A DNA stretch of 64,000 nucleotides from Oligoflexia bacterium (GTDB lineage Bacteria > Bdellovibrionota > Bacteriovoracia > Bacteriovoracales > Bacteriovoracaceae): NCBI GenBank assembly GCA_015231955.1, contig JADGAN010000001.1, positions 1 through 64,000 on the forward strand, read 5' to 3'. The notes under the pieces are model-generated. The model ran no database searches. It saw only the letters and a program-made list of their open reading frames with translations, and had not been told where the DNA came from. The position numbers and the translations under genes are program-made. The stretch's first letter is position 1. Every line of letters begins with the position of its first letter. Positions 55,807-58,302 of the stretch are shown piece after piece.

Positions 55807-57111
55807 TTATTCACTAAGTATATAAAGTAAATATTTCAAGTAGTGGGTTTTATCACCAAGCGAAGCGATAGGATGATCAGGGCCCTCCATTCCAATATCT
55901 ACAAGCTGGATACTATTTGCTCCCGTAGATGACACCATGTCCCTTGCCTTCAACCTCCTAAAGGCCTCATTAACCGCGAAATCCAAATCCTCAAGCGAGA
56001 CATAGTTAGTGCAAGAACAGACCGCTAAAACAGCATTGGACTCTAAAATTTGAAAAATCTTTTCATAGAGTTTTAAATATCCATTGATCGCTTTTTCTTT
56101 ATTTCTTACAGTTTTAGCAAATGCTGGTGGATCAGAAGTAATCACATCATACTTTAATTTTTCTTCTATTCGCCGATCTAAAAAATCATACACGTCAGTT
56201 CTATAAAAAATTCCTTTTCCTTCATAACGATTAAGCATAAGGTTTTGCTCTACAACCGCAGAAAACTTTCCTTGATCAACAAAATCCACATGACTAACAC
56301 CTGCACGCAACTGATGCATCCCCCAAGAACCCGCATAGGTAAAAAGATCCAATCCCTTGGCACACTTGATTTTTTTTCGAGAAATTTTTTTCACCATGTT
56401 TTCAAATTTATGACGATTATAACGATGGTCGTAGTAGTAGCCAACTTTCTGAATCACTGCTTCGTCAATGATAATTTTAAATCCATTCTCCTTTAACATA
56501 ATATGCTGTTTGGAAACTCTGTTTTGCCAAGAATATTCATCATTCCAAATCGGCAGACCATTTTTAACCCGTTCTTCGGCATTATCCAAAAAATAGACTG
56601 CGTTCTCTGGATAGAGTAATGCCATTGTTTTTTGAATAATATTTCGATGCCGGTCAATGCCTTCAGTATTGATTTGAACCAAAATGATATTGCAATACTT
56701 ATCAATGACCAGCCCAGGAAGCTTATCTGCATCTCCATAGACAAGTCGCATGCAATCATCCTCAAACTCTCCAAAAAAATTCCTCCGCTTAATTGCTGCA
56801 TTAATAGCAAATTTTAAATAATTTTCTCCGATTTCATTTTCTTTCAAACTGCCTAGATCACTCCCCTGTAAATGCATCTTTTCCCTGATGTATCCATCAA
56901 TTTTTGATAACACACGAATCATTGATTGCTCATTATCGGCATTTAAGTTGATATAGGCCAAATAAGCTGCTTTTTCTTTTTGATCGCTTAGTACAATCCA
57001 CTCACCAGGAATAAACGATTTGGGCAATAATTCACAATCCGCTTCGAGCAAATTCTTCACATCCCTTCTAACTTTCACGGCCCCATTTCTGGAGAGATTT
57101 ACCACTTTCAC
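55807..57111 (-). CDS. Class I SAM-dependent rRNA methyltransferase (RlmI-like)
   Basis: The 434-residue protein begins with a PUA-type region and contains 'RLVYGDADKLPGLVIDKY', the conserved joining block of RlmI. The Rossmann domain has 'GLDLFTYAGSWGMHQLRAG', motif IV DPPAFAK and the cysteine motif VCSCTNY of m5C enzymes. RlmI in E. coli methylates C1962 of 23S rRNA. Relatives in the same COG act on other sites, so I do not give the symbol. Translation starts at GTG with GGAG five bases upstream. A MITE lies in the 5' gap, 77 bases upstream of its start. Confidence 0.9.
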   Translation of the reverse strand: MKVVNLSRNGAVKVRRDVKNLLEADCELLPKSFIPGEWIVLSDQKEKAAYLAYINLNADNEQSMIRVLSKIDGYIREKMHLQGSDLGSLKENEIGENYLKFAINAAIKRRNFFGEFEDDCMRLVYGDADKLPGLVIDKYCNIILVQINTEGIDRHRNIIQKTMALLYPENAVYFLDNAEERVKNGLPIWNDEYSWQNRVSKQHIMLKENGFKIIIDEAVIQKVGYYYDHRYNRHKFENMVKKISRKKIKCAKGLDLFTYAGSWGMHQLRAGVSHVDFVDQGKFSAVVEQNLMLNRYEGKGIFYRTDVYDFLDRRIEEKLKYDVITSDPPAFAKTVRNKEKAINGYLKLYEKIFQILESNAVLAVCSCTNYVSLEDLDFAVNEAFRRLKARDMVSSTGANSIQLVDIGMEGPDHPIASLGDKTHYLKYLLYILSE

Positions 57112-57180: not shown

Positions 57181-57302
57181 CTACAATCGTAACTGCTCAC
57201 ACCCCTCAACCTTCACCTCTCAACCAAATGCTGTTAGCTAAGCAACTTTCAGCATCCGGTAGAGGGTAGATGGCTGAAGGGTGTGAGCAGTTACCTACAA
57301 TC
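57181..57302. mobile_element. 106-bp IS66-like MITE with 8-bp target duplication
   Basis: A non-coding palindrome of 106 bp (57189-57294) begins GTAACTGCTCACACCC and ends with its exact reverse complement GGGTGTGAGCAGTTAC. A further 29 bp on each arm are about two-thirds complementary, leaving a 16-base centre. The same 8-bp direct repeat CTACAATC sits immediately outside on both sides (57181-57188 and 57295-57302). The terminal GTAA and 8-bp duplications are features of the IS66 family, as I recall them. The right copy of the duplication contains the stop codon of the exported-protein gene, so insertion fell just after it and did not break it. Confidence 0.85.
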
Positions 57303-58245
57303 TATTGGACTTTTTCTGAAAATATTTTTGTGCTTTTCCACTATTGATTTGATAATTGTCAAAAATAATTTTCTCTTCATTAGCATTTCCTTCAGCAATT
57401 TCAATTTTTCTAGTTGCACCATCTTTATCTTTTTTCAATTCCACTTTGAGCATCTCTGTTTTGGTAAAGACCGCTGTTGGCAACATAAATCCTGCAAATT
57501 TATCGTGCTTTAAAGAAGTTTCTGATTTTCTAATACTATTTCCATAGTCCATTGAGATATCAAGCGAAGAGAGCAGCCACTTGTTTTGGGCCTCATTACT
57601 CTTGACCCATTCAAATTTAGAAATTTCCAATCCTGTTGGCAACTGTGCTACTAGCTCTTTTAATCCTCCATCGTTATCCATCGTTAATTTAACAGTGGAT
57701 ACAGGGCCCATCATATTTTTATCTTTTCCATTAATAATGGTCTCTTGATTCTCTTTGAACAATTTTTCTACTTTAAAATCAAAACTTTTCAGTTTATCTC
57801 CAAACGAAGAGGAAATCACATACCCAAAGCGCATCAATGCAATCTTGATCAGGTGTTCTTTTAAATTACTAAACCCCCGAGGAAGTCCAATAACCTCTGC
57901 ATCGATTTTTCCTCCTTGAAGCCAGTACACTCGAATGATCATTTTTTCAATCGGCATATCTCCAAGCAATGCACCGATATCCTCTACGGCCTCTTTAAAC
58001 TTAAGATCCACGACTAAATCTTTAAGCCCAAACATCTCTGCATGATAAACTCCTGTATCCAGCCTTTTTATGATATCCCCTGCGGACTTGGCATCAGCGG
58101 CCGTAACAGCAGCAAACGAGTTGCTGTCAGCAATCGAATTATTAGCAACAACATTGCTAATAACAAAACAAACTACAAAATTTACGACCATCACACTAAG
58201 TGAATAAAAAACACGCATACTTCTTACCTTGTTATTGCTTCCCAT
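57295..58245 (-). CDS. Exported protein of unknown function
   Basis: This 316-residue protein has an N-terminal signal peptide (SLSVMVVNFVVCFVISNVVA), then a periplasmic beta-rich domain with repeated 'DVKLKF'-like strands such as 'LKDLVVDLKFKEAVED' and 'MDYGNSIRKSETSLKHDKFAGFMLPTAVF'. The curved beta pattern is faintly reminiscent of LolA/outer-membrane lipoprotein-sorting folds, without a motif I trust. I start at ATG 58245 with GGAG nine bases upstream. A TTG further upstream would overlap that site. A MITE follows directly after the stop codon. The methyltransferase gene downstream on the same strand is separated by it. Confidence 0.75.
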   Translation of the reverse strand: MGSNNKVRSMRVFYSLSVMVVNFVVCFVISNVVANNSIADSNSFAAVTAADAKSAGDIIKRLDTGVYHAEMFGLKDLVVDLKFKEAVEDIGALLGDMPIEKMIIRVYWLQGGKIDAEVIGLPRGFSNLKEHLIKIALMRFGYVISSSFGDKLKSFDFKVEKLFKENQETIINGKDKNMMGPVSTVKLTMDNDGGLKELVAQLPTGLEISKFEWVKSNEAQNKWLLSSLDISMDYGNSIRKSETSLKHDKFAGFMLPTAVFTKTEMLKVELKKDKDGATRKIEIAEGNANEEKIIFDNYQINSGKAQKYFQKKSNRL

Positions 58246-58302
58246 TTTTATATTCTCCAAAATTTGCTCTTGTTTTAATTTTACTTCTATTTTTGTCTAT
58301 AG

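What the first reader, a model, noticed from the sequence alone, without database searches (positions are those of the whole stretch)
57181..57302. A fresh-looking MITE with an exact 8-bp target duplication right after a stop codon
Terminal repeats GTAACTGCTCACACCC and GGGTGTGAGCAGTTAC are perfect over 16 bp. The arms extend as an imperfect 45-bp stem, and CTACAATC flanks both ends exactly. Undecayed ends and duplication suggest recent movement. The duplication restores the TAG stop of the exported-protein gene, so the neighbour kept its reading frame. As transcribed, the element makes a long RNA stem between that gene and the methyltransferase gene, which may change mRNA processing or termination. 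No transposase is present here, so mobilisation in trans by an IS66-type element is inferred from the GTAA ends and 8-bp duplication.
Basis: partly seen in the sequence, partly recalled or inferred. Interest (0 to 1): 0.75.

Follow-up and report, generated by a model that had tools for sequence, protein, structure and literature searches.

The report
Recent IS66-type MITE, targeted by IS1111
This is one of about 65 nearly identical miniature jumping elements in a bacterium related to the Oligoflexia; they are most likely moved by an IS66-type transposase, often land exactly on a gene's stop codon without harm, and about a quarter of them have been invaded at one fixed base by a second insertion sequence of a kind known to be guided by RNA.

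Summary
Window 57189-57294 is a 106-bp MITE with perfect 16-bp ends and an exact 8-bp duplication (CTACAATC). The genome holds at least 65 copies; 33 of 45 uninterrupted copies are letter-for-letter identical to this one, and 33 of 45 have perfect 8-bp duplications, nearly all different. IS66 transposase genes lie in elements of the same genome with the same 12-bp tips, ~80% similar 52-bp ends and 8-bp duplications. Two relatives keep the same gene order with a short MITE-free spacer. So it is a non-autonomous IS66-family element that spread recently.

Two things go beyond the finding. (1) 9 of 33 insertions sit on a stop codon: the duplication carries the stop (as here) or the element's G-TAA tip replaces it (3% expected, p=6e-7). 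(2) All 18 left ends found of an IS1111-type insertion sequence sit at one point of the MITE's terminal repeat, GGGTGTGAGC^AGTTAC; 17 of 65 MITEs are hit. Its presumed guide RNA could not be matched to the target above chance.

Close precedents exist (Coxiella QMITE2/IS1111; IS4321/IS5075 in Tn21 ends). Verdict: new member of a known kind.

The parts
57181..57188 (.). left copy of 8-bp target duplication CTACAATC
57189..57294 (+). 106-bp MITE; identical to 33 of 45 uninterrupted copies in the genome (count includes this one)
57189..57204 (+). left 16-bp terminal inverted repeat (perfect); homologous to IS66 ends over ~52 bp
57279..57294 (-). right 16-bp terminal inverted repeat; in other copies the IS1111-type element inserts at GGGTGTGAGC^AGTTAC, which here is 57288^57289 (and symmetrically 57194^57195 in the left repeat)
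   Evidence: not occupied in this copy
57295..57302 (.). right copy of CTACAATC; its first three bases (57295-57297) are the TAG stop of the neighbouring minus-strand gene
57295..58260 (-). 321-aa gene (signal-like N-terminus, no Pfam hit) whose stop codon lies in the duplication
55807..57111 (-). RlmI-like class I SAM RNA methyltransferase, next gene downstream; gene order conserved without the MITE in two relatives

Best explanation
The stretch is a miniature inverted-repeat element: the two ends of an IS66-family insertion sequence with no gene between them. It is moved in trans by an IS66 transposase of the same cell that recognises the GTAACTGCTCAC ends and makes 8-bp staggered cuts at A/T-rich sites. 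It spread very recently in this genome. Insertions survive mostly outside genes or exactly at gene ends: when the target overlaps the last codons, either the duplication carries the stop, or the GTAA tip supplies TAA in the right frame. The identical, repeated TIR in turn serves as the fixed landing site of an IS1111-type element, presumably guided by its own RNA. Shown: copies, ends, duplications, IS66 genes with the same ends, stop-codon placement, IS1111 junctions. Inferred: mobilisation in trans, recency as present activity, RNA guidance, and any effect of the hairpin on the transcript.
For: 65 copies by core, 60 exact; 45 uninterrupted, 33 with exact and varied 8-bp duplications, 82% A/T; 33/45 identical over 106 bp, mean divergence 0.85%. 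IS66 transposase (PF03050; NF033517) next to ends with the same tip: C36 end 67 bp past the tnp stop, C72 element with duplication TATTTTTG, C21/C40 N-terminal side. MITE arms match IS66 ends at 38-43 of 52 positions, alignment scores 24-34 against shuffle maxima of 10-13. Relative G060 has a 100-bp cousin with duplication GTAATTTT and an IS66 gene with a matching end. Same gene order without a MITE in G059 and G060. Stop-codon placement 9/33 vs 3.2%. IS1111-type junctions.
Against: No intact IS66 copy could be read through: contigs break inside it, and the C72 copy is broken, so a working transposase is not proven. The MITE is only ~80% like the IS66 ends present here, so its direct parent may be another, unassembled or lost IS66. 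12 of 45 uninterrupted copies lack an exact duplication (one of them differs by a single base).
Confidence: 0.92

Rival explanations
1. It is a fixed structured RNA or transcription terminator kept by selection between the two genes.
For: Very stable hairpin on both strands; lies just after a stop codon in an intergenic space.
Against: 65 near-identical copies beside unrelated genes with duplicated targets; no intrinsic terminator; Rfam hits only far below cut-off, mostly to miRNA-type generic hairpins; absent between the same genes in relatives.
Confidence: 0.02
2. Non-autonomous element moved by another transposase family that also makes 8-bp duplications, the IS66 likeness of the tips being coincidental.
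For: An 8-bp duplication alone is not unique to IS66 (established knowledge).
Against: 52-bp end similarity to elements carrying IS66 transposase in two genera; the IS66-bearing elements show 8-bp duplications too.
Confidence: 0.03
3. The clustering of IS1111-type copies in MITEs reflects the two having spread together as one composite unit rather than repeated targeting.
For: Both are multi-copy and nested.
Against: The IS sits in either MITE arm (8 right, 9 left) and in variant MITEs (C27, C7, C66, C73), while most MITEs have no IS; the insertion point is always the same base.
Confidence: 0.06
4. The stop-codon excess is due to target preference of the IS66 transposase rather than to survival of harmless insertions.
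For: Stops are A/T-rich and the duplications are 82% A/T; the excess is large.
Against: All 6 in-gene insertions that lose the native stop lie in the one frame where the tip reads xxG-TAA, which selection explains and target preference does not obviously explain.
Confidence: 0.3

Closest known systems
QMITE2 and IS1111 of Coxiella burnetii (PMC5896051)
   Same: MITE with 7-11 nt duplications, mainly at 3' ends of genes and between genes; 20 of 21 IS1111 copies lie inside QMITE2.
   Different: There the target is a GTAG REP-like palindrome, mostly in diverged copies, and most MITE insertions predate strain divergence; here the target is the MITE's perfect TIR, both arms are hit, most copies are identical and duplications are intact. 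Sequence relation was not tested.
IS4321/IS5075 in terminal repeats of Tn21-family transposons (Partridge & Hall 2003, cited in PMC11187229; described in PMC8269217)
   Same: IS1111-family element whose fixed target is the terminal inverted repeat of another mobile element.
   Different: Target there is the terminal repeat of Tn3-family transposons; here a 16-bp repeat of an IS66-type MITE.
IS66 family, single-gene (ISBst12-like) arrangement (family knowledge, from memory)
   Same: GTAA tips, 8-bp duplication, DDE_Tnp_IS66 transposase.
   Different: The focal element has no gene; partner copies here carry tnpC only, some with an added four-helix-bundle gene.
ERIC and Correia elements (PMC10969869)
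   Same: Short palindromic elements in transcripts, some processed by RNase E or III.
   Different: Processing not tested here; different ends and duplications.

Membership tests
MITE | short, no coding capacity, terminal inverted repeats | tested here: met
   106 bp, 16-bp perfect TIR; too short for, and without, an ORF of its own of 60 aa
MITE | multiple copies with target duplications | tested here: met
   65 copies, 33 with exact 8-bp duplications
MITE | autonomous relative with the same ends | tested here: met
   IS66-bearing elements with same 12-bp tip and similar 52-bp ends
MITE | mobilised in trans | not testable with these tools
   needs an experiment
IS66 family (partner element) | DDE_Tnp_IS66 transposase | tested here: met
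   PF03050 and NF033517 hits on fragments
IS66 family (partner element) | 8-bp target duplication and GTAA tips | tested here: met
   C72 TATTTTTG; C59 AATAAAAG
IS66 family (partner element) | intact transposase gene | tested here: inconclusive
   contigs end inside the gene; C72 copy is broken
IS1111 group (element inside MITEs) | subterminal inverted repeats of 11-13 bp with 7-bp left and 3-bp right extensions (PMC11187229) | tested here: met
   TAATGGA + ATGGACTCGCC at left; GGCGAGTCCAT + ATA at right
IS1111 group (element inside MITEs) | IS110-type transposase | tested here: met
   N- and C-terminal fragments hit NF033542 at 9e-5 and 4e-10, at the matching ends of the model; full gene not assembled
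IS1111 group (element inside MITEs) | long noncoding region downstream of tnp | tested here: met
   396 nt in the C37 copy
IS1111 group (element inside MITEs) | one fixed target | tested here: met
   18 of 18 left junctions and all right junctions read
IS1111 group (element inside MITEs) | guide RNA segments matching both target strands | tested here: inconclusive
   best matches 8 nt and 7 nt with one mismatch each, jointly reached by 30% of shuffles

The most novel reading that the evidence does not exclude
A two-tier mobile system: an IS66-type MITE whose GTAA tip makes it dock harmlessly on stop codons, and an IS1111 element whose guide RNA is tuned to the MITE's terminal repeat, so that each burst of the MITE makes new safe landing sites for the IS. 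The pairing seems to reach beyond the genus: related IS copies in G059 also abut the AGTTAC tip.
Probability: 0.35. Interest if true: 0.6.

Novelty: new member of a known kind. Interest (0 to 1): 0.42.

Why it matters
It documents a very young IS66-type MITE burst in a poorly studied group (Oligoflexia relatives), shows by numbers how a mobile element's tip can make insertion at stop codons harmless, and adds a case of an IS1111 element locked to another element's terminal repeat, with about 18 junctions and diverged relatives with other targets (G040, G069), useful for working out how such guide RNAs choose targets.

Tried and rejected
No second genome of the genus is held, so no base-exact empty site. 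Complementarity of the IS1111 noncoding region to its target was not above chance (30% of shuffles), and comparison with relatives did not settle which loops read the target. Terminator and Rfam readings rejected. Copies without duplication were compared for swapped partners by eye; no exact swap seen, some look like deletions next to an IS66 end (C72, C92). A possible discrimination between MITE ends (ACACCC) and IS66 ends (ACTCCC) by the IS1111 was considered, but the number of unoccupied IS66 ends is too small to test. PF02371 found only one diverged copy, probably because the main IS1111 copies are collapsed at contig ends.

Full report
Observation. The sequence is as described: a 106-bp element at 57189-57294 with perfect 16-bp inverted ends, flanked by CTACAATC on both sides. 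It folds into one hairpin over its whole length on either strand. It lies between a 321-aa gene (57295-58260, minus) and an RlmI-like methyltransferase gene (55807-57111, minus). The TAG stop of the first gene is part of the right duplication.

Copies. A whole-genome search of the window's own assembly (5.6 Mb, 114 contigs) found 82 matches, counting both strands of the palindrome, and 146 occurrences of the 12-base tip against none for the reversed control. A core search gave 65 MITE copies, 60 with an exact 39-base core. Reading all of them: 45 are uninterrupted and 106 bp long, 33 of these with an exact 8-bp duplication, nearly all different, 82% A/T; 17 are interrupted by another element; the other three are short or altered variants. 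33 of the 45 are identical in all 106 bases, the focal copy among them, and mean pairwise divergence is 0.85%. This is a recent burst.

The IS66 link. IS66 transposase genes (PF03050) occur in the genome. Several sit in elements with the tip GTAACTGCTCAC: at C36 the transposase ends 67 bp before such an end; C72 holds an element with duplication TATTTTTG and a broken transposase; contigs C17, C19, C21 and C40 end inside the other side of such elements, C21 and C40 with the start of the transposase, as expected for several near-identical copies in a short-read assembly. No tnpA or tnpB fits between the end and tnpC, so it resembles the single-gene IS66 type. The MITE arms match the IS66 ends at 38-43 of 52 positions, far above shuffles. 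In the same family but another genus, G060 has a 100-bp cousin with duplication GTAATTTT and an IS66 gene joined to a similar end, and G059, whose locus reads the same as the Oligoflexia MAG record JADGAM010000046.1, has a related MITE. Only 3 of 129 genomes of the order, this one included, have a match.

Site without the element. In G059 and G060 the order MoxR-ATPase, methyltransferase, exported protein, NFACT-like gene is the same, with a short spacer and no MITE. This is an empty gene pair, not a base-exact empty site.

Stop codons. For the 33 copies with duplications the empty site was rebuilt in a script. 22 lie outside ORFs of 100 aa or more, against 83% of random window positions being inside. 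Of the 11 that touch an ORF, five carry the stop inside the duplication (including the focal copy), four lie so that xxG-TAA, made with the element's tip, falls exactly where the stop was, and two shorten the ORF with the same G-TAA stop. Nine of 33 at the stop compares with 3.2% of permissible background positions (p = 6e-7). ORFs here are mechanical calls, so the background is approximate. I read this mainly as survival of harmless insertions.

The second element. Contig ends revealed that many MITEs are interrupted after GGGTGTGAGC. All 17 left ends of this element found by search sit at that base in a MITE, and an 18th was found in C82. Its right ends all continue with AGTTAC, the last six bases of the MITE. 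Eleven left and right contig ends pair by identical MITE duplications, and C82 pairs with C83 in the same way, which shows the element was put into already inserted MITEs. Both arms are hit (8 and 9). The element has an 11-bp subterminal repeat with 7-bp left and 3-bp right extensions, a noncoding region of 396 nt downstream of the transposase, and transposase fragments that match the IS110 family model at its two ends; these are the features that define the IS1111 family (PMC11187229). Members of that family are guided by a seekRNA; here the matches between the noncoding region and the target are no better than in shuffled sequence, so guidance is inferred from the family. Related copies in G059 also abut the MITE tip, while relatives in G040 and G069 have other flanks.

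Comparison. The nearest case is Coxiella QMITE2, a MITE with 7-11 nt duplications found at 3' ends of genes, in which 20 of 21 IS1111 copies lie (PMC5896051). IS4321/IS5075 target the terminal repeats of Tn21-type transposons (PMC8269217; PMC11187229). The present system is a new member of this kind, clearer than most because the copies are so young.

Limits. The assembly is fragmented, neither autonomous element can be read whole, and nothing here tests activity or an effect of the hairpin on the transcript.

Noticed in passing
L105-L121, L126-L140, L210 (G000 contig ends): An IS1111-type element occupies the same base in the terminal repeat of about 18 MITE copies; many contig breaks of this assembly are caused by it.
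   Followed up: yes
L088 436-804; L148 1241-1660; L051; L074: IS66-type elements with the same ends carry a 23S-rRNA-intervening-sequence / four-helix-bundle gene (PF05635, E 3e-37; TIGR02436) between the transposase end and the terminal repeat, a possible route by which such genes travel.
   Followed up: partly
33 MITE sites (L157-L220): MITE insertions cluster on stop codons; the GTAA tip supplies a replacement stop in the correct frame in all six cases where the native stop is lost.
   Followed up: yes
L083 2458-4719 (G000:C46): A second, different IS66-type set: tnpA- and tnpB-like ORFs with an IS66 transposase ORF on the opposite strand at a contig end; its ends were not determined.
   Followed up: no
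L229 (G040), L228 (G069): Relatives of the IS1111-type element with different flanking targets, possible natural retargeting.
   Followed up: partly
L194 and L166 (G000:C51:23825, C25:5280): A 92-bp deletion form of the MITE, in C25 with an exact 8-bp duplication (CAAAATTA), suggesting the shorter form can also move.
   Followed up: no
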